The notes under the pieces: generated by a model
The model's input: the letters and a program-made list of their open reading frames with translations, nothing else
Databases searched by the model: none
Told to the model about the DNA's origin: nothing
Program-made: the position numbers and the translations under genes
Assembly: GCF_006265115.1 (NCBI RefSeq)
Contig: NZ_SMDR01000002.1
Location: 371,743-435,742, forward strand
Source: Arenimonas terrae
GTDB lineage: Bacteria > Pseudomonadota > Gammaproteobacteria > Xanthomonadales > Xanthomonadaceae
Length of the DNA: 64,000 bases
Direction: 5' to 3'
Shown here: piece by piece, positions 40,605-49,300 of the stretch
How positions within the stretch are numbered: the stretch's first letter is position 1
Layout: the number at the start of each line of letters is the position of its first letter

Positions 40605-42710
40605 TCAGGCGCCGGCGAACCGCGCCGCGCCGCCGACCCAGCGCTCCACCACGCGGTCGGCGAGCCCGGGCGATTCGGCCAGCAGGGTCTCGGCGGCGCG
40701 GTGCACTTCCGGCAGCAGGTCCGCGTCGCGCACCAGGTCGGCGACCCGGAAGCTGGCCAGGCCGGTCTGGCGCGTGCCCAGCAGCTCGCCGGGGCCACGC
40801 AGCTCCAGGTCCTTCTCGGCGATCAGGAAACCGTCGGTGCTGGCGCGCATCACCTCCAGCCGTTCGCGCGCCATCTGCGACAGCGGCGGTTTGTACATCA
40901 GCACGCAGCTCGACGCCGCCGCGCCGCGACCCACGCGCCCGCGCAGCTGATGCAACTGGGCCAGGCCCAGGCGTTCGGCATTTTCGATGATCATCAGGCT
41001 GGCGTTGGGCACGTCCACGCCGACCTCGATCACGGTCGTGGCAACCAGCAGTTGCAGCTCGCCGGCCTTGAAGCGCGCCATCACCGCCTGCTTCTCCGCC
41101 GGCTTCATGCGGCCGTGCAGCAGGCCCAGGCGCAGGTCCGGCAGGGCCGCCGTCAGCTGTTCGTAGGTGGACTGGGCGGCCTGCGCCTCGACCTCCTCGC
41201 TGTCCTCGATCAGGGTGCAGACCCAGTAGGCCTGGCGCCCTTCGGCGCAGGCGGCGCGGATGCGCTCGACCACTTCGCCACGGCGGTCGCCGCTGACCGC
41301 GACCGTCGTCACCGGCGTGCGCCCGGGCGGCATCTCGTCGATCACGGACACGTCCAGGTCGGCGTAGGCCGACATCGCCAGCGTGCGTGGAATCGGCGTC
41401 GCCGTCATCACCAGCTGGTGCGGCGCCTGGCTGCCGTCCAGACCCTTGTCGCGCAGGGCCAGGCGCTGGTGCACGCCGAAGCGGTGCTGCTCGTCCACCA
41501 CCACCAGGGCCAGGCTGGCGAAGGCGACCTTGTCCTGCATCAGCGCATGCGTGCCGACCACGACCTGGGCCCGCCCGGACGCGATCTCCGTCAGCGCCGC
41601 CGTGCGCGCCTTGCCGGTGACCTTTCCCGCCAGCCAGGCCACCTGCACGCCCAGCGGCTCGAGCCAGGCGCGGAAGTTGGCGAGGTGCTGTTCGGCCAGC
41701 AGCTCGGTCGGCGCCATCAGCGCGACCTGGCGGCCGGCCTCGACCGCATTGGCGGCCGCCAGCGCCGCCACCACGGTCTTGCCGCTGCCGACGTCGCCCT
41801 GCACCAGGCGCAGCATCGGCTCCGGGCGCGCCATGTCGCGCGCCACTTCGTCCAATACGCGCTGCTGCGCGCCGGTGAGCTTGAACTTGAGCCGGCGGCC
41901 CAGCGAGGCCGCGAGTTTTCCCGGCGGCCGGACCGGCATCGCGCCGTGTGCGCGCAGGGCGATGCGCTGGCGGCGCAGGCTCAGGTGGTGCGCCAGCAAT
42001 TCTTCCAGGGCCAGGCGCCGCTGGGCCGGATGCACGCCGAGCGCGAACTGCGGCAGGTCGGCGTCCGGCGGCGGACGGTGCGCGGTGAGCAGGGCCTCGC
42101 GCAGGGTCGGCAGCTGGAGGCGTTCGCGCAGGCCGGCCGGCAGCAGTTCCAACTGCTCCGCCGGCGGCAGGCGCTTGAGTGCTTCGCCGATCAGCCGCAA
42201 CAGCGACTGCGGCCCCAGGCCCTCCACCGCCGGGTAGACCGGGTCGAGCCGGTCGCGCACGCCGGCTTCCGCATCGTCGGCCAGCATCCGGTAGCTCGGG
42301 TGCACCATCTCCAGCCCGTGCTGCCCGGGACGCGGCTCGCCGTAGGCGACCAGGCGCCGACCCGGCACGAACAGCGCCGCCTGCGCCCGGTTGAAGTGGA
42401 AAAAGCGCAGCACCACGGTCGCCTGCGAGGGATCCGACACCGCCACCTTCAGCACCGGCCGGTAGCGGAAGCCGCGCTCGACGGCCAGCACCTGCCCCAC
42501 CACCTGGGCCGGCGAGCCGGCGGCCAGCATTCCGATCGGGGTTACGCGCGTGCGGTCCTCGTAGCGCAGCGGCAGCAGGAACCACAGGTCCTGCACCTGG
42601 TGCAGGCCGCGCGCCGCCAGCTTGGCGGCGACCGCCGGCCCGACGCCGGGCAGCGTCGTGACCGATTGCGACAGGGGATCCACCGAGGGGGCGGGCGGGC
42701 GTTTGGGCAT
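40605..42710 (-). CDS. recG: ATP-dependent DNA helicase RecG
   Basis: This 701-residue superfamily 2 helicase remodels stalled forks and Holliday junctions. The N-terminal wedge/OB region (LPGVGPAVAAKL, then the beta-rich part near 60-150) binds branched DNA. The motor has Walker A GDVGSGKT (305-312), APTELLAEQH, DEQHRFGVHQR, TATPIPRTLAM, and a C-terminal RGRVGRG motif VI with a TRG-like helical hairpin after it. The length is usual. It starts 36 nt past the strong terminator of the upstream TonB receptor gene. The stop lies just before the nucleoside hydrolase promoter. Confidence 0.96.
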   Translation of the reverse strand: MPKRPPAPSVDPLSQSVTTLPGVGPAVAAKLAARGLHQVQDLWFLLPLRYEDRTRVTPIGMLAAGSPAQVVGQVLAVERGFRYRPVLKVAVSDPSQATVVLRFFHFNRAQAALFVPGRRLVAYGEPRPGQHGLEMVHPSYRMLADDAEAGVRDRLDPVYPAVEGLGPQSLLRLIGEALKRLPPAEQLELLPAGLRERLQLPTLREALLTAHRPPPDADLPQFALGVHPAQRRLALEELLAHHLSLRRQRIALRAHGAMPVRPPGKLAASLGRRLKFKLTGAQQRVLDEVARDMARPEPMLRLVQGDVGSGKTVVAALAAANAVEAGRQVALMAPTELLAEQHLANFRAWLEPLGVQVAWLAGKVTGKARTAALTEIASGRAQVVVGTHALMQDKVAFASLALVVVDEQHRFGVHQRLALRDKGLDGSQAPHQLVMTATPIPRTLAMSAYADLDVSVIDEMPPGRTPVTTVAVSGDRRGEVVERIRAACAEGRQAYWVCTLIEDSEEVEAQAAQSTYEQLTAALPDLRLGLLHGRMKPAEKQAVMARFKAGELQLLVATTVIEVGVDVPNASLMIIENAERLGLAQLHQLRGRVGRGAAASSCVLMYKPPLSQMARERLEVMRASTDGFLIAEKDLELRGPGELLGTRQTGLASFRVADLVRDADLLPEVHRAAETLLAESPGLADRVVERWVGGAARFAGA

Positions 42711-42745
42711 CCGGCAAGGATGCCGGCAACGCCCGCAAACAAAAA

Positions 42746-42768
42746 CCCCGGCGCACGGGGCGCCGGGG
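42746..42768 (-). terminator. Strong terminator of the TonB receptor operon
   Basis: A perfect 9-bp stem (CCCCGGCGC at 42746-42754, complement at 42760-42768) is followed on the minus strand by TTTTTGTTTG. It lies about 65 nt past the receptor stop. Confidence 0.9.
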
Positions 42769-42834
42769 TGGGGAAAACCCGTGCGTGATGGTGCGACCCC
42801 CCGCTGGGGATTCCGGCGGGCCGCGTCCGCGGGG

Positions 42835-45258
42835 TCAGAAATCCACGCTCATCTCCACGCCCCAGGTGCGCGGCTCGGTCAGCCGCGCGCCGACGGTGCC
42901 GAGCACCGTCTTGCCGTAGGTGCCAAGTGAACTGACGTACTGGTTGTCGAACACGTTGTTGCCATAGACCGCCAGGCCGAACCGGCCGCTGGCCGAATCC
43001 CAGCCCAGGCGCACGTCGGTGCGCTCCTGCGATTCGCCCAGGCGCAGCACGCCGCTGACGCCGCAGGTACCCTGGGCTTCCGACTCGGCGGTGCAGCGGG
43101 TCTTGCCACGGTAGGCATGGCGCAGCGACAGCCGCAGGTCGCCGGCGTCGCCCAGCATCCACTGGTAGCTGAAGCCGCCCGCGACCGACCATTCCGGCGT
43201 GCCGGTGGGCTGGCCGGACAGGTCGTCGCCTTCCGGCGTGACGTAGTCCTTGTAGGTCGAATCGATGTAGGCCGCGACCAGGTCCAGCGTCAGCCCGTCG
43301 GTCACCTGCCAGCGTGCGTCGAAGTCCAGGCCCCAGGCCTCGAGGTCGGAGGTGTCGACGACGTAGTGCGGGATGGCCGTGGTGGTGTCGAGGCGGATCG
43401 CCTGGCGGTCGTCGTAGGTGTAGTGGTAGGCGGAAAGGTTGTAGCGCAGCCGCTGCTCCGGCAGCGAGTGCTTGATGCCGATCTCGAAGTTCCAGACGTC
43501 CTCGTTGCCGAACTCGCTGCCGATCTGCAGCGAGTTGAAGCCGCCGGCCTTGTAGCCCTTGGCCAGCGAGGCGAAACCCATCAGGCGGTCGGTGAAGTGG
43601 TAGTCGGCGACCAGGCGCGGGCTGAAATCGTCCCAGGACTGGCTGGCGCCGTTGCGGACGCCCTTGTTCGCCATCGCCGGCGGATCGATGAAGGCGATGT
43701 CGAACACGAAGGCCTCGCGCGGCAGGCCGAGCACACCGAACAGGCCCAGGGCCTCCATCTGGTCCAGGGTCGCGTCCAGGGTCGGCGCGGTGCGCTGGCC
43801 GTTGAGCCAGGTGAAGTCCTTCTCGTCGTAGGTGTAGCGCAGGCCGAAGGTCAGGTTCAGGCGGTCGGTGGCGTGCCAGATCACGTCGCCGAACGCGGCG
43901 TACGCGGTGGTGTCCATGCCGTTGATGAACTTCTCGTTCCAGCGGTGGCCCAGCAGCGACAGCGGGATGCCGTTGGCCTGCATCACCTGGGTGACGTAGC
44001 CGAACAGCGTGCCGTCGGGCGTCGGCGCCATGCCGAGGTTGGCCAGGATGCTGTCCACCGAGTCGGTGAAGGCGTTGATCTCGCTGGTCTGGTCGGCCGA
44101 CTCCTTGAAGTAGCTGGCGCCGAACACCCAGTCGAAGCGATCGCTGCCGCCGCTGAACTTGAACTCCTGGTAGACGTTCGAGTTGGACTCGGTATTGGTC
44201 GAGTCGACGTAGAGGTAGAGCCGGTCGGTGCCGTCCTCCTCGACCCGGTTGAGCGAGTCGTAGTCGTGCCAGGCCGTGGTCGAAGTCAGCTCGCCCCAGG
44301 TGAAGGCGTGGTCGACGATCAGGGTGACGCCGTCGAAGCGGCGCGATTCCTCGTTGCCCTCGGCGTCCACCGTCGCCCGCGTGTTGAACGGGTCGAGGTA
44401 GGACGACTCGTCCACCGGCAGCGGGATGCGTCCCGGCGCCGGCGGCAGCGCGACGACGCCGATGGTGGCCTGGCCGAGCTGGTCGAGCTCTTCGTGGTCC
44501 CAGGAGATCCAGGCGCGCGTGTTCTCGCCGAAGCGGGTGCTGAAGGCGGCGCGCGCGGCCCAGGTGTCTTCCGGCGCGAGGTCCTGGCCGGTGTTGCCGT
44601 CCTGGATCCAGCCGTCGGCCTGGTTGGACAGGCCGACGAAGCGGAAGGCCGAGTCCTGGCCGACCGGCAGGTTGAGCATGCCGTGGACATACTGCTTGCC
44701 GTCCTCGCCGAAACGCGCGGTCGCGCGCGCGTCGAACTCGAGGTCCGGCCGGTGGGTGACGATGGACAGCGCGCCGGCCGCAGTGTTGCGGCCGAACAGC
44801 GTGCCCTGCGGCCCCTTCAGCACCTCGATGCGTTCGACGTCGGTGAAGGGCAGCAGCACGCCGCCGCCGCGTCCGGCGTAGACGCCGTCGACATAGACGC
44901 CGACGGCCGGATCGGTGCCGATGCCGAAGTCGGAGGTACTGATGCCGCGCAGCTCGATGCGCGGCTGGGTCGGCTGGCGGCTGTCGATGTCCAGGCCGGG
45001 CACGTAGGAATCGACGTCGCCGAGGCCTTCGGCCGCGAGGTCCTCGATCAGCTGTTCGTTGACCACCTGCATCGCGATCGGCACGTCCTGCACGTCCTGC
45101 TCGCGGCTCTGCGCGGTGACGGTGATCGTGTCGAGCACGGTCGGCTCGGCCGGCGGCGTGGCGTCCTGTGCGAACGCCAGGCCCGCGGCGCCAAACGCCA
45201 GCCCGCCCACCAGTGCCTGGCGCACGCGCACGCTCAGGCGATTCCTGCGAAGTGTCAT
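42835..45258 (-). CDS. TonB-dependent outer-membrane receptor
   Basis: This 807-residue protein has a signal peptide (ending AGLAFAQ), a TonB box-like TITVTAQ, a plug domain with DVPIAMQVVNEQLIEDL, GIGTDPAVGVYVDGVYAGR and VEVLKGPQG-type VERIEVLKGPQGTLFGRNT, and a beta-barrel ending in the aromatic terminal Phe (MSVDF). It is of the iron-complex/carbohydrate type with no STN domain. It is the last gene of an operon with the diheme cytochrome and beta-helix lipoproteins. GGGGAGGGG precedes the ATG at 45258, which overlaps the cytochrome gene by 4 nt. The ligand is unknown. Confidence 0.93.
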   Translation of the reverse strand: MTLRRNRLSVRVRQALVGGLAFGAAGLAFAQDATPPAEPTVLDTITVTAQSREQDVQDVPIAMQVVNEQLIEDLAAEGLGDVDSYVPGLDIDSRQPTQPRIELRGISTSDFGIGTDPAVGVYVDGVYAGRGGGVLLPFTDVERIEVLKGPQGTLFGRNTAAGALSIVTHRPDLEFDARATARFGEDGKQYVHGMLNLPVGQDSAFRFVGLSNQADGWIQDGNTGQDLAPEDTWAARAAFSTRFGENTRAWISWDHEELDQLGQATIGVVALPPAPGRIPLPVDESSYLDPFNTRATVDAEGNEESRRFDGVTLIVDHAFTWGELTSTTAWHDYDSLNRVEEDGTDRLYLYVDSTNTESNSNVYQEFKFSGGSDRFDWVFGASYFKESADQTSEINAFTDSVDSILANLGMAPTPDGTLFGYVTQVMQANGIPLSLLGHRWNEKFINGMDTTAYAAFGDVIWHATDRLNLTFGLRYTYDEKDFTWLNGQRTAPTLDATLDQMEALGLFGVLGLPREAFVFDIAFIDPPAMANKGVRNGASQSWDDFSPRLVADYHFTDRLMGFASLAKGYKAGGFNSLQIGSEFGNEDVWNFEIGIKHSLPEQRLRYNLSAYHYTYDDRQAIRLDTTTAIPHYVVDTSDLEAWGLDFDARWQVTDGLTLDLVAAYIDSTYKDYVTPEGDDLSGQPTGTPEWSVAGGFSYQWMLGDAGDLRLSLRHAYRGKTRCTAESEAQGTCGVSGVLRLGESQERTDVRLGWDSASGRFGLAVYGNNVFDNQYVSSLGTYGKTVLGTVGARLTEPRTWGVEMSVDF

Positions 45259-46497
45259 GGTCCCCTCCCCTGCTGATCGTTGTTGTTTTCGGCCACGTCC
45301 GTCCCGGACGGCTCGTCGCCGGTCCCGCATTCCCCCGTCTGCGCCGCGATCCATTCCCGGATCAGCGCCGCGCCCTCCCGGTGCACGACGCTGCGGCCGA
45401 GCTCGGGCATCATCACGCCCGGGTCCACGCTCTCGATCCGGAAGCTGAGGATCGACGCGTCCGGATCGCCGGGCACGTAACCGAAGCGCCGGTCGCCGGT
45501 GCCCTGGCCGGCCGCGATCGGCAGCTTGCAGCGGCCCAGCCGCAGCGGCTCGACGACGTCGCTGCCCAGCCACAGGCCCGAGGTGTTGCCGGGGCCGCGC
45601 GGGCTGTGGCAGTGCGCGCAGTTGCTGTCGAGGTAGGCGCGGGCGCGCGCGTCGAGCGAAGCGCCGGCGCTGTCGCGCCAGTCCGCCAAACGCGGCGCCG
45701 ACGCCGGTTCCGGCGCCCCCGTCAGCAGGCCGGCCTGCTGCCAGTGCGCGAGCTGGTTGCGGATGATTTCCCCGCCATCGTCGCCGCGATAGGCGAGGTC
45801 GCGGTTGAGGTTGCGCGCATTCGGGCCGATCGGGTGCAGCACGCGGCTGCGCAGGTCGCTGGCATGGCAGCCGGCGCACTGGTTCTGGTCGGGAACGGCG
45901 TAGGCGGCCGGCTCGCTCGCGCCGGTCGCATCCACCAGCTCCAGGCGGACCAGGGAGCCGCCGCGCATCAGCCGCGCCTCGGTCTGCGCCGCATTCCAGA
46001 CATAGGGCAAGGCGACCCAGCCGGCTTCGCGCCGCACCAGCAGCCGGGTTTCGACCAGGCGCACCTCGGCCAGCGCCAGGCGCCCGCCCGGGCGCGTGCC
46101 GGTGCGGTCATCGCTGCGCTGCACACGCGCGCCGTCCGCCGGTTCGCCGGCCAGCCGCGGGTAGTAGAAGGTCTTGCTGAGGATGGTGCCGACCGGGAAC
46201 TCGAACGTCTCGTCGGCGCGGTAGCCGGCGGCGGTGCCGGCCGGCATCCACACCGTGCGCAGCTTGTGCGCGTAGTCGGTGAACAGCGGCGTGTTGAGCT
46301 CGTAGGGCAACACGCCGTCATTGGGTGCCAGTTCGCCACCGCGCAGCTTGAACAGGTGCCAGGCCGACAGCGTCTCGGGCAGGCCCTCGGCGTGGAAGGC
46401 GACCGGCGGCGGCGCGCGCATGCAGCCGGCAAGCGATGCCAGCGCCAGCACCGCCATCGCCGCGGCCCACCGGAGCAGCGGCGGGTGGATCGATGGC

Positions 46498-46505
<8 letters not shown>
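45255..46505 (-). CDS. Diheme cytochrome c lipoprotein (SO2930/HNE_0200 type)
   Basis: This 416-residue lipoprotein has a lipobox LAGC (Cys28) and two haem sites, CAGCH (210-214) and CAHCH (296-300), with DPGVMMPELG near 361-370 as a likely axial methionine. The N-terminal 200 residues (LSAWHLFKL, LNTPLFTDYAHKLRTVWMP, SKTFYYPR) are the non-haem domain of the family I know as TIGR03806 (HNE_0200). It is found beside a parallel beta-helix protein, as here. It starts with GTG, overlapping the beta-helix gene by 8 nt. A periplasmic electron-transfer or oxidase role is inferred. Confidence 0.9.
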
Positions 46506-47742
<1,237 letters not shown>

Positions 47743-47790
47743 CCCGAATTCCTCCGCCCGGCGGACGGCCGGGTATGGGGATAGTCTCGG

Positions 47791-47811
47791 CGTGAACACA
47801 TTCCCTTCACG
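47791..47811. promoter_or_regulatory. Putative operator between the beta-helix operon and the araC-type gene
   Basis: CGTGAA (47791-47796) and TTCACG (47806-47811) form a 6-bp inverted repeat with a 9-nt centre in the divergent intergenic region. Its spacing of about one and a half helical turns suits a dimeric regulator. No experimental support. Confidence 0.4.
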
Positions 47812-47866
47812 AGGGCCGGGACGGCATAGTATGGGGGGCAAAACGGCCACCCCGGGGACCCGCTCG

Positions 47867-48910
47867 ATGCCATCGCCCGCCCTGCCCGACCTGACGTCCG
47901 CGACGCCGCTGAACATCAAGAACGGCATCGTCATCGGCCTGCTCGCCCGCGCCGACGAACTGGGCGTGGACAGCGGCCCCTGGTTCGAGGGCACCCGCCT
48001 GGATCGCCGCAACTTCCAGGCCGACGCGCCCGCCTACGTCTCCTACCGCCAGGCCTGCGACATCATCCAGCGCGCCCTCGACAGCCTGCCCGGCGAAGGC
48101 CATGGCCTGGAGATCGGCGCCCGCCAGGACGTCGGCAACTTCGGCCTGCTAGGCCTGGCGATGATGACCGCGCGCGATTTCGGCGAGGCACTGCGCCTGG
48201 GCATCGAGTTCGCGGCGATCACCGGCGCGATGCTCGAGATGCAGCTGGCGGAGGACCCGGCCAGCGGCGACGTCGCGGTGTCGGCCTGGATGCGCAACCG
48301 CACGCCGCGCATCGAGCCTTTCCTGTGCGAGGAGCTGTTCGCCAGCTGCCTGAAGCTGTGCCGCGGCCTGCTGGGCCCGGGCTTCAGTCCGCGCCGCGCC
48401 GAGCTGGCCTATGCGCCGCCGGCCCACGCCGACGACTACGCGCGCGTGCTCGGCTGCGAAGTGCGCTTCGGTGCGCCGGCCAACCGCGTGCTGATCGAAC
48501 GGCACTGGCTCGCCACGCCGATGGGTGCGCACAACCCGGTCAGCGCCCGGCACATGCTGACGCTCTGCCGGGAACAGATGCCGCGAGGCGCCTCCGGCAA
48601 CAACATCGTCGAAACCGTCGGCAACCTGCTGCGCCTGCAGCTGGCCGACTCGCCGCGCCTGGTCGACATCGCCACCGAACTGCACTTGGCCGAACGCACC
48701 CTGCGCCGGCAGCTGCACGGCGCCGGCACCAGCTGGCAGGAACTGCACGACCGGGTCCGCCGCGACGTCGCCGAACAGATGCTGCGCCGGCCCGGCATCC
48801 GCATCGCCGAGGTCGGCGCCGCCACCGGCTTCCAGGACGCGCGCGAGTTCCGCCGCGCCTTCCGGCGCTGGACCGGCCGCTCGCCCAGCGAGATCCGCAG
48901 CCGGCCCTGA
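47867..48910 (+). CDS. AraC-family transcriptional regulator with Arabinose_bd-type N-terminal domain
   Basis: This 347-residue protein has an N-terminal ligand-like domain (about 15-210; YRQACDIIQRALDSLPGEG, FGLLGLAMMTARDFGEALRL) of the PF12625 type found in OruR/ArgR-like and many uncharacterised regulators. The C-terminal AraC helix-turn-helix pair is clear: LVDIATELHLAERTLRRQLHG (bipartite) and IRIAEVGAATGFQDAREFRR, followed by WTGRSPSEIR. It is divergent from the beta-helix/cytochrome/receptor operon, which it probably activates in response to the operon substrate. An ATG at 47831 is an alternative start. Confidence 0.92.
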   Translation: MPSPALPDLTSATPLNIKNGIVIGLLARADELGVDSGPWFEGTRLDRRNFQADAPAYVSYRQACDIIQRALDSLPGEGHGLEIGARQDVGNFGLLGLAMMTARDFGEALRLGIEFAAITGAMLEMQLAEDPASGDVAVSAWMRNRTPRIEPFLCEELFASCLKLCRGLLGPGFSPRRAELAYAPPAHADDYARVLGCEVRFGAPANRVLIERHWLATPMGAHNPVSARHMLTLCREQMPRGASGNNIVETVGNLLRLQLADSPRLVDIATELHLAERTLRRQLHGAGTSWQELHDRVRRDVAEQMLRRPGIRIAEVGAATGFQDAREFRRAFRRWTGRSPSEIRSRP

Positions 48911-48916
48911 GCCGCC

Positions 48917-49300
48917 TCAGCCCAGGTGCATCACCGCATCGACCTCGACCCGGGCGCCGCGCGGCAGGCCGGCCACCTGGATGGTGGAACGCGCCGGGTA
49001 CGGCGCCTGGAAATACTCCGCCATCACCGCGTTCACCTGGGCGAAGTCGGCGAGGTCCATCACGTAGATGCCGACCCGCACCACGTGGTCGAGCGAACCG
49101 CCGGCGGCTTCGCAGACCGCGCGCAGGTTGTCGAACACGCGTCGCGTTTCGGTGGCGATGTCGGCCTGCACCAGCTGGCCGGTGGCGGGATCGAGCGGGA
49201 TCTGGCCGGACAAGTAGACGGTGCCGCCGGCGCGTACGGCCTGGGAATACGGGCCGATGGCGGCAGGCGCGCGTTCGGTGCTGATCGGTTGGCGGGACAT
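48917..49300 (-). CDS. ridA: RidA-family enamine/imine deaminase
   Basis: This 127-residue protein hydrolyses reactive enamine/imine intermediates such as 2-aminoacrylate. IGPYSQAVRAGGTVYLSGQIPLD, the VRVGIYVMDLADFAQVN segment and ARSTIQVAGLPRGARVEVDA with the active-site Arg are all present, matching the usual trimer-forming length. It is a single gene between the araC-type regulator and spoT; 67 nt separate it from the spoT 3' end. Confidence 0.95.
   Translation of the reverse strand: MSRQPISTERAPAAIGPYSQAVRAGGTVYLSGQIPLDPATGQLVQADIATETRRVFDNLRAVCEAAGGSLDHVVRVGIYVMDLADFAQVNAVMAEYFQAPYPARSTIQVAGLPRGARVEVDAVMHLG

What the first reader, a model, noticed from the sequence alone, without database searches (positions are those of the whole stretch)
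42835..48910. TonB receptor, diheme cytochrome and beta-helix lipoproteins with a divergent AraC regulator: a candidate undescribed uptake/oxidation system
Seen: a three-gene operon with 8- and 4-nt overlaps encodes a beta-helix lipoprotein (Cys25), a diheme lipoprotein (CXXCH at 210-214 and 296-300) and a TonB-dependent receptor, with its own strong terminator and a divergent AraC-type gene. Known, as I recall it: the beta-helix and cytochrome families (TIGR03805 and TIGR03806) recur as a two-gene pair of unknown function. Inference: the receptor imports a large or insoluble substrate, the beta-helix protein binds it, and the diheme protein oxidises it or accepts its electrons, under substrate-responsive control. 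An operon combining import and redox chemistry is unusual.
Basis: partly seen in the sequence, partly recalled or inferred. Interest (0 to 1): 0.72.

Follow-up and report, generated by a model that had tools for sequence, protein, structure and literature searches.

The report
Regulated uptake-and-oxidation operon, function unknown
Four bacterial genes (a switch protein, an outer-membrane importer and a two-protein heme partnership) travel together as one unit with a private control site; they probably import and oxidise some unknown compound, but what they act on has not been shown.

Summary
In detail: a lipoprotein beta-helix (TIGR03805), a diheme lipoprotein (TIGR03806) and a TonB receptor in one overlapping operon, with a divergent PF12625-type AraC gene and a terminator-like hairpin. 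In a sample of 198 same-family genomes the four occur in the same 44, at the thresholds used; one further genome has a weak AraC match only. Fourteen genus-mates have ridA and recG directly adjacent, so the block looks like a self-contained insert. New here: a 39-bp element with a 22-23-bp direct repeat between AraC and operon, in 44 of 44 carrier loci; its strict form occurs once per genome, only in carriers. The two-gene pair is the core: outside the order 64 of 71 loci lack this receptor type. The beta-helix is modelled on alginate epimerases but has lost their catalytic Asp and His. The cytochrome has one Met-ligated heme and one without an invariant Met/His sixth ligand, in a possibly P460-like domain. 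Neighbours (aldehyde dehydrogenase, FadL) and glucose-dehydrogenase fusions of paralogs suggest an oxidation, perhaps aldehyde-forming. 'Import plus redox' has precedents (MbnP/MbnH, RoxA). Mechanism and substrate remain inferred.

The parts
42835..45258 (-). TonB-dependent receptor (807 aa), third gene of the operon
   Evidence: PF00593 and PF07715; none of the 25 NCBIfam models listed is over its cut-off
45255..46505 (-). SO2930-family diheme c-type cytochrome lipoprotein (416 aa, GTG start)
   Evidence: TIGR03806 384 bits; CXXCH 210-214 and 296-300; Met366 119 of 119
46498..47742 (-). Parallel beta-helix lipoprotein (414 aa), first gene of the operon
   Evidence: TIGR03805 428 bits; model pLDDT 88; top fold match AlgE4 epimerase module
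47867..48910 (+). Divergent AraC-type regulator (PF12625 + HTH_18)
47811..47849 (-). Predicted operator: conserved 39-bp element with direct repeat of 22-23 bp period, between AraC and the operon
42745..42769 (-). Intrinsic terminator-like hairpin after the receptor gene
48917..49300 (-). ridA-like gene: flank of the insertion site, not part of the module
   Evidence: identity of the gene recalled from its sequence; no family scan made
40605..42710 (-). recG: other flank of the insertion site, not part of the module
   Evidence: identity of the gene recalled from its sequence; no family scan made

Best explanation
A self-contained, AraC-controlled uptake-and-oxidation module. Shown by sequence: four genes present or absent as one block in this family, with a private conserved element in front of the operon. 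Inferred: the substrate binds and activates AraC, which switches the operon on from the direct-repeat element. The TonB receptor brings the substrate into the periplasm. The beta-helix lipoprotein binds it in a groove derived from, but chemically different from, that of polyuronate epimerases. The diheme lipoprotein, its regular partner, oxidises it at heme 1 (no invariant Met/His sixth ligand) or takes its electrons, passing them through the His/Met heme 2 to the respiratory chain. The likely product type is an aldehyde, which a dehydrogenase encoded next door in some relatives turns into an acid. Substrate class (alcohol, aromatic, lipid-like or sugar) is open.
For: Co-occurrence of all four proteins in 44 of 198 sampled genomes, identical sets (compared). 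Filled and empty sites. Element in 44 of 44 carrier loci (43 by regex plus L077 by eye); strict 27-bp pattern with up to 2 mismatches in 29 of 198 genomes, once each, all carriers, each in the AraC/beta-helix gap; backward control pattern 1 hit. Pair fused into one protein in L104-L106 and L136-L138. In G417, G495 and G532 the best match to the window receptor is the one beside the pair (rank 1 of 24, 20 and 10 match rows). Aldehyde dehydrogenase directly after the receptor in 7 of 9 Rhodanobacteraceae loci and in L152, between receptor and beta-helix in L178; FadL within 7 kb in 6 loci. Four of four long cytochrome paralogs scanned (L139-L142) carry a glucose/sorbosone dehydrogenase domain over cut-off (124-148 bits).
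Against: No cofactor site other than the hemes is visible in either lipoprotein. Outside the order most loci lack this receptor, this regulator and an aldehyde dehydrogenase nearby. Among the family loci scanned only L152 has an aldehyde dehydrogenase beside the operon. The Rhodanobacteraceae loci are related, so 7 of 9 is about one event. Receptor distances follow SpoT (0.55) more than the pair (0.21, 0.31), so tight receptor-pair co-evolution is not seen. Heme 1 could be Lys-ligated (Lys81, Lys111 invariant) or, in most members, use His375 (106 of 119). The substrate is unknown and nothing was measured.
Confidence: 0.4

Rival explanations
1. Electron-transfer or redox-homeostasis pair: the cytochrome only relays electrons at the outer membrane and the beta-helix is its scaffold; in this order it was placed under an AraC gene beside a receptor that serves a separate role.
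For: The pair stands without this receptor or regulator in most loci outside the order; receptor distances do not follow the pair. SO_2930 and SO_2931 of Shewanella stand in the outer-membrane/extracellular column of a cytochrome table (PMC4837345 passage), and SO_2931 among outer-membrane cytochromes deleted in a strain with low cathodic current (PMC5829830 passage).
Against: Strict co-inheritance with receptor and regulator in 44 of 44 carriers, the same receptor type beside the pair in other classes, and invariant polar/aromatic residues on stacked strands of the beta-helix.
Confidence: 0.2
2. RoxA-like oxygenase: heme 1 binds O2 and cleaves C=C bonds of a hydrophobic compound into aldehydes; fragments enter through the receptor or FadL.
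For: Aldehyde dehydrogenase and FadL neighbours; two c-hemes with one invariant Met ligand; RoxA/RoxB are dihaem oxygenases whose product is an aldehyde, with TonB receptors and FadL discussed for import (PMC5979037 passages).
Against: No convincing match to the CCP/MauG family (4 of 23 members, best E 0.058); that RoxA belongs to that superfamily is recalled, and RoxA itself was not compared. Glucose-dehydrogenase fusions of paralogs point to dehydrogenase electron transfer instead.
Confidence: 0.15
3. Metal (copper) acquisition resembling MbnP/MbnH: the diheme protein oxidises an aromatic residue of the beta-helix (for example invariant Trp140) to make a metal site; the receptor imports a metal complex.
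For: Same gene logic of diheme plus partner plus TonB transporter (PMC3621798 passages); NosD-type beta-helix match; Trp140 84 of 84.
Against: TIGR04039 and TIGR04052 not listed for either protein at E<=0.001, and NosD model TIGR04247 28.5 of 300 bits; no His, Met or Cys among the beta-helix positions conserved at 95% or more.
Confidence: 0.12
4. P460/cytochrome c'-beta type chemistry on NO or hydroxylamine, with the rest of the operon serving detoxification.
For: Weak but repeated P460 signal: Pfam PF16694 in 11 of 23 members (best 5.3e-4), Foldseek rank 3 (E 0.23), hhalign 26-45% against at most 1% for column-shuffled controls.
Against: All below accepted thresholds; a TonB receptor and an aldehyde dehydrogenase do not fit NO detoxification.
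Confidence: 0.06

Closest known systems
TIGR03805/TIGR03806 (SO2930 family) two-gene pair
   Same: Both window proteins pass the curated cut-offs; pairing and fusion seen here
   Different: Here the pair sits with a TonB receptor, a divergent AraC gene and a private conserved element, which most pairs outside the order lack
MbnP/MbnH (TIGR04039/TIGR04052) with MbnT-type TonB transporters
   Same: Partner protein plus di-heme cytochrome, in cases beside a TonB-dependent transporter (PMC3621798 passages)
   Different: Different protein families: neither model is listed for the window proteins
RoxA/RoxB dihaem rubber oxygenases
   Same: Secreted two-heme c-type proteins proposed to work upstream of TonB/FadL import, with an aldehyde product (PMC5979037 passages)
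   Different: No beta-helix partner known to me (recalled); RoxA was not compared directly here
Mannuronan C5-epimerases (AlgE A-module)
   Same: Closest solved fold to the beta-helix model (Foldseek E 9e-10); the Tyr of the Y-x-x-D-x-H spacing kept as Y151
   Different: Asp152 and His154 of AlgE7 (PMC8824271 passages) correspond by spacing to Tyr154 and Val156, each 84 of 84
peg operon of Sphingopyxis (polyethylene glycol catabolism; recalled; search gave nothing relevant)
   Same: TonB receptor, AraC-type regulator, aldehyde dehydrogenase and a redox enzyme together
   Different: Its dehydrogenase is a flavoprotein (recalled), not a beta-helix/diheme pair

Membership tests
TIGR03805 beta-helix family | Score over curated cut-off 141.5 | tested here: met
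   428 bits
TIGR03806 SO2930 diheme cytochrome | Score over cut-off 313.3 and two CXXCH | tested here: met
   384 bits; motifs
TonB-dependent receptor | Plug and beta-barrel domains over cut-off | tested here: met
   PF07715 69.8 and PF00593 93.6 bits
Siderophore receptor TIGR01783 | Score over 223.5 | tested here: not met
   156.2 bits
AraC regulator with PF12625 sensor | Arabinose_bd and HTH_18 over cut-off | tested here: met
   138 and 66.6 bits
Mannuronan C5-epimerase / alginate lyase | Catalytic Tyr, Asp, His | tested here: not met
   Tyr kept, Asp to Tyr154 and His to Val156 by motif spacing, 84 of 84 (AlgE7 residues from PMC8824271 passages). No residue-level superposition was possible
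NosD copper family TIGR04247 | Score over 300 | tested here: not met
   28.5 bits
MbnP/MbnH | TIGR04039/TIGR04052 match | tested here: not met
   neither listed at E<=0.001
Cytochrome P460 | PF16694 over cut-off 27 | tested here: not met
   17.9 bits for the window protein; 11 of 23 members match weakly
Cytochrome P460 | Same fold of the heme-1 domain | tested here: inconclusive
   Foldseek rank 3, E 0.23, TM by query 0.19; hhalign 26%, 45%, 27%
CCP/MauG diheme peroxidases | PF03150 match | tested here: not met
   4 of 23 members, best E 0.058, not among the window protein's listed hits
Single transcription unit | Co-transcription of the three genes | not testable with these tools
   Overlaps and conservation only; no RNA data

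The most novel reading that the evidence does not exclude
The beta-helix/diheme pair is a new class of two-subunit heme oxidase or oxygenase: an epimerase-fold subunit whose catalytic residues were replaced by an invariant Tyr/Asp/Glu groove presents the substrate to a catalytic heme in a P460-like domain, with a second heme as electron outlet. In Lysobacterales it has been built into a relocatable, self-regulated import operon.
Probability: 0.25. Interest if true: 0.8.

Novelty: new variant of a known kind. Interest (0 to 1): 0.5.

Why it matters
A widespread pair known mainly by model number gets a testable context: a regulator with a single predicted target site (so the inducer can be screened with one reporter), a receptor of its own, and structural reasons to expect a heme-based oxidation. 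Finding the inducer would point at once to the substrate of a family found in several bacterial phyla.

Tried and rejected
Rejected: siderophore receptor model (TIGR01783 below cut-off); alginate epimerase or lyase (catalytic residues gone by spacing); MauG/CCP membership; MbnP/MbnH and NosD membership. Rejected as general: receptor and AraC as constant companions of the pair.

Led nowhere: papers for TIGR03806 (0), 'SO2930 family' and 'parallel beta-helix domain-containing protein' (0), a four-term combination (4 papers, listings only, none on this system by title and abstract start), the peg operon (5 listings, none relevant), 'Dyella japonica' with fitness terms (listings only). TIGR03805 is named in two papers, each time as a domain label in a table for another protein: Bcam1339 of a Burkholderia exopolysaccharide cluster (PMC3584217 passage) and a Streptococcus salivarius surface protein (PMC5847202 passage). 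PMC3219624 does not mention SO2930 or SO2931 in its main text. Sequence search of solved structures with the cytochrome gave nothing convincing. Most of the 20 neighbour proteins scanned beside pairs outside the order are unrelated to one another; one, in L120, is a TonB receptor of another type.

Weak or contrary results: the P460 link is below thresholds. The aldehyde dehydrogenases of L130, L131, L143 and L222 are of another kind (about 30% identical) than those of Rhodanobacteraceae, L152 and L178 (39-92%), so three lineages share one kind next to the pair; L181 and L183 have that kind 8-9 kb away. In some searches only 5, up to 10 and 2 candidates per genome were scored, so absences there rest on a first look. 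Distance correlations used 35 of 44 loci; nine were dropped because one of six genes was missing, split or below a score limit; RecG and SpoT, which are only neighbours, reach 0.65, so 0.77 for the pair is a modest excess. G417, G495 and G532 were chosen because a receptor lies beside their pair; they are three of seven such loci, the other four were not tested. Grouping of loci into families is mine, by name or flanking genes.
Full report
WHAT IS THERE. The window holds, between a ridA-like gene and recG, a three-gene operon on the minus strand and a divergent AraC gene. The order is beta-helix lipoprotein (46498-47742), diheme lipoprotein (45255-46505, GTG start) and TonB-dependent receptor (42835-45258), with AraC at 47867-48910(+). 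The families are TIGR03805 (428 bits, cut-off 141.5), TIGR03806 (384, cut-off 313.3), a generic TonB receptor, and PF12625 plus HTH_18. A terminator-like hairpin with a 10-bp stem follows the receptor. The scan's count of such sites (3) is not above its shuffles (2.4), and no sigma-70-like promoter was found. The stretch folds better than all but 3 of 200 shuffles.

WHERE IT COMES FROM. The sampled 'family' is Lysobacteraceae: contigs of G099, G072 and G191 have the lengths of named Luteimonas and Pseudoxanthomonas records and the same cytochrome DNA. The nearest named cytochrome is Arenimonas daejeonensis (74%). No call names the window's own species.

ONE UNIT. In a sample of 198 family genomes, TIGR03806 is over cut-off in 44 (50 at E<=0.001; the other six score 183 bits or less). 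TIGR03805 is over cut-off in 44 (72 at E<=0.001; the other 28 score 45.5 bits or less). The window receptor at E<=1e-100 is in 44, the AraC at E<=1e-50 in 45. The first three sets are identical; the AraC set adds only G134, at 1.8e-52, where the weakest carrier has 2.2e-82. The order AraC(divergent)-helix-cytochrome-receptor is kept in 44 of 44 carrier loci. Of these, 40 have ridA and recG on the two sides, L082 has ridA and then the contig ends, and 3 lie elsewhere (L066, L073, L088). In L093 the receptor is split into two frames.

Of 21 genomes of the genus, 19 gave a recG match. Two sites are filled: the window's own (L255), and L256, where a receptor precedes recG. Fourteen are empty, with ridA directly before recG. 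Three are undecidable at contig ends. Of the 14 empty genomes, G042, G076 and G103 were also searched and lack the set; G180 carries it elsewhere (L066); the other ten were not searched for it. By eye, presence and absence mix within five genera of the sample (g1, g11, g20, g29, g30), each time for all four genes.

The intergenic regions share an element that in the window runs from 47849 to 47811 on the minus strand. Gapped words of it occur in 14 of 15 genus groups, against at most 8 in five shuffles. It is in 44 of 44 carrier loci: 43 by a regular expression and L077 by eye; 20 shuffles of the 43 gave 0-2. Comparing its first 15 letters with later ones in 44 of 46 intergenic regions (two others did not match the expression), identity peaks at 0.54 for offsets 22 and 23, against at most 0.41 elsewhere from 12 to 31. 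That is a direct repeat about two helical turns apart, as AraC-type proteins often use (recalled). A strict 27-bp pattern with up to 2 mismatches hit 29 of 198 genomes, once each, all of them carriers, each time in the gap between AraC and the beta-helix gene. The pattern read backwards hit once. The other 15 carriers have a longer spacer or a diverged form, as in genus g16, so single occurrence is shown for 29. Among named Lysobacteraceae loci with the gap in view, seven match with 3 or fewer mismatches and L145 has the element with one base fewer. All ten Rhodanobacteraceae-type loci carry its first half: L116 and five others, L154, L156, L158 and L171 with 0-2 mismatches. L154 and L156 show the repeat again 22 bp on. 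No match was seen in the other loci scanned outside the order. So the regulator probably serves this operon alone.

THE PAIR IS THE CORE. Outside Lysobacterales, 92 loci were tallied; 71 have 5 kb or more on both sides. Of these 71, the beta-helix gene is present in 70, this receptor type (500 bits or more, within 6 kb) in 7, this AraC type (250 bits or more) in 1. Counting TonB receptors of other types found with nine seed proteins, 12 of 71 have one within 6 kb. In Rhodanobacteraceae loci with both flanks the receptor is present in 8 of 9 and AraC in 7 of 9. A Novosphingobium plasmid locus (L143) was not in the tally. The pair is fused into one protein in L104, L105, L106, L136, L137 and L138 (L104 and L138 also scanned with the curated models: both parts over cut-off in L104, the cytochrome part of L138 below it). 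Distances of the two proteins across 35 of 44 family loci correlate at 0.77. This is above RecG-SpoT (0.65) and above either with the receptor (0.21, 0.31) or AraC (0.40, 0.44); the receptor follows SpoT (0.55) better than the pair (related loci, no significance claimed).

The receptor is still a recurring partner. In G417, G495 and G532 (other classes or families, chosen because a receptor lies beside the pair) the best match to the window receptor in the whole genome is that neighbour (rank 1 of 24, 20 and 10 match rows). It lies upstream, downstream or divergent. In the 398-genome phylum sample, receptor matches at E<=1e-70 occur in 6 genomes, all pair carriers (only 2 candidates per genome were scored).

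STRUCTURE AND CONSERVATION. The beta-helix model (22 sequences, mean pLDDT 88) is closest to AlgE4 and AlgE6 mannuronan C5-epimerase modules (best Foldseek E 9e-10, TM 0.48-0.52). AlgE7 uses Tyr149, Asp152, His154 and Asp178 (PMC8824271, passages). In 84 dereplicated homologs the same spacing reads Tyr151, Tyr154, Val156, each 84 of 84: the Tyr stays, the Asp and the catalytic base are gone. Stacked strands about 22 residues apart carry further residues at 84 of 84: Asp173, Tyr177, Gln180, Glu199, Glu201, Asn202, Phe223. This looks like a conserved groove with new chemistry. The mapping to AlgE rests on motif spacing, not on a superposition.

The cytochrome model (23 sequences, mean pLDDT 84) has no good match in solved structures (none at E<=0.001). 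Weak signals agree on a cytochrome P460-like domain around heme 1. Foldseek rank 3 is P460 (E 0.23, TM by query 0.19). PF16694 matches 11 of 23 members (best 5.3e-4). hhalign gives 26%, 45% for the heme-1 half and 27% with a deeper alignment. Column-shuffled controls reach at most 0.2% (30 shuffles) and 1% (50 shuffles). Across 119 core homologs Met366 is invariant (heme 2 ligand, by position). Besides the two heme-binding His, no other Met or His is invariant: His298 inside the second CXXCH is 116 of 119, His375 106, Met365 93. Lys81 and Lys111 are 119 of 119, so heme 1 may be Lys-ligated rather than open.

CONTEXT CLUES. In 7 of 9 Rhodanobacteraceae loci with both flanks (L148, L149, L153, L155, L156, L158, L171) and in Stenotrophomonas nitritireducens L152, an aldehyde dehydrogenase follows the receptor directly. 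In L178 one lies between receptor and beta-helix. Their Cys motif I recall as typical of class-3 (coniferyl, fatty or benzaldehyde) enzymes; the best named model for L153 is MdlD, under its cut-off. FadL-type genes lie within 7 kb in 6 loci (5 Dyella or Rhodanobacter loci, and L136 directly upstream of a fused pair). A VolA-type phospholipase lies near L104 and L105. Long cytochrome paralogs (below the TIGR03806 cut-off) in L139-L142 all carry a glucose/sorbosone dehydrogenase domain over cut-off (4 of 4 scanned); L141 and L142 add starch-binding modules. So relatives of this cytochrome probably take electrons from a sugar-type dehydrogenase, and in the pair the beta-helix stands in its place. 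Together these suggest an oxidation, possibly giving an aldehyde. Against it: most pairs lack such neighbours, the related loci count as few events, and the hints (lipid-like against sugar) do not agree.

WHAT IS KNOWN. In the paper library TIGR03806 and 'SO2930 family' are not named; TIGR03805 appears in two papers as a table label for other proteins (passages). SO_2930 and SO_2931 stand in the outer-membrane/extracellular column of a table (PMC4837345 passage). [quoted passage not shown] also PMC5829830 and PMC10986466 passages). That these two tags are the tandem genes seen in L104/L105 is inference. MbnP/MbnH pairs beside TonB transporters (PMC3621798 passages) are the closest known logic. 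RoxA/RoxB with TonB and FadL import (PMC5979037 passages) is a known parallel in chemistry. The peg operon parallel is recalled.

VERDICT. Real, conserved, locally regulated, function unknown. Module status about 0.9 likely; the oxidation mechanism about 0.4; a new heme-enzyme class about 0.25. It is a new variant of a known kind (diheme-plus-partner pair beside a TonB receptor), not categorically new on present evidence.

Noticed in passing
L093 (G101), receptor gene beside the pair: The receptor is split into two adjacent reading frames (query 5-499 and 500-806), a frameshift or an assembly error.
   Followed up: no
L143:9789-13581 (Novosphingobium sp. EMRT-2 plasmid): An IS5 transposase gene lies between two pieces annotated as TonB receptor, just upstream of a beta-helix/cytochrome pair; aldehyde dehydrogenases, PQQ alcohol dehydrogenase and methylamine dehydrogenase genes lie nearby.
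   Followed up: partly
L100-L103: Stand-alone relatives of the diheme protein (160-183 bits, below the TIGR03806 cut-off) without a beta-helix match in the stretch of about 19 kb, including one in the window's genus.
   Followed up: no
L139-L142: Very long proteins joining a cytochrome of this type to a glucose/sorbosone dehydrogenase domain (4 of 4 over cut-off); L141 and L142 also carry starch-binding and PSD-type domains.
   Followed up: partly
L120, L127, L135, L198, L208: TonB receptors of other types than the window's lie within 6 kb of the pair; L120 and L135 confirmed by Pfam.
   Followed up: partly
L180, L124: A TetR-type regulator gene follows the cytochrome gene; L180 also has another AraC-type gene upstream of the pair.
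   Followed up: no
L104, L105: A fused beta-helix/cytochrome protein is followed by a second cytochrome copy and an AraC-type gene (in L104 with a weak PF12625 match), near a VolA-type phospholipase.
   Followed up: partly
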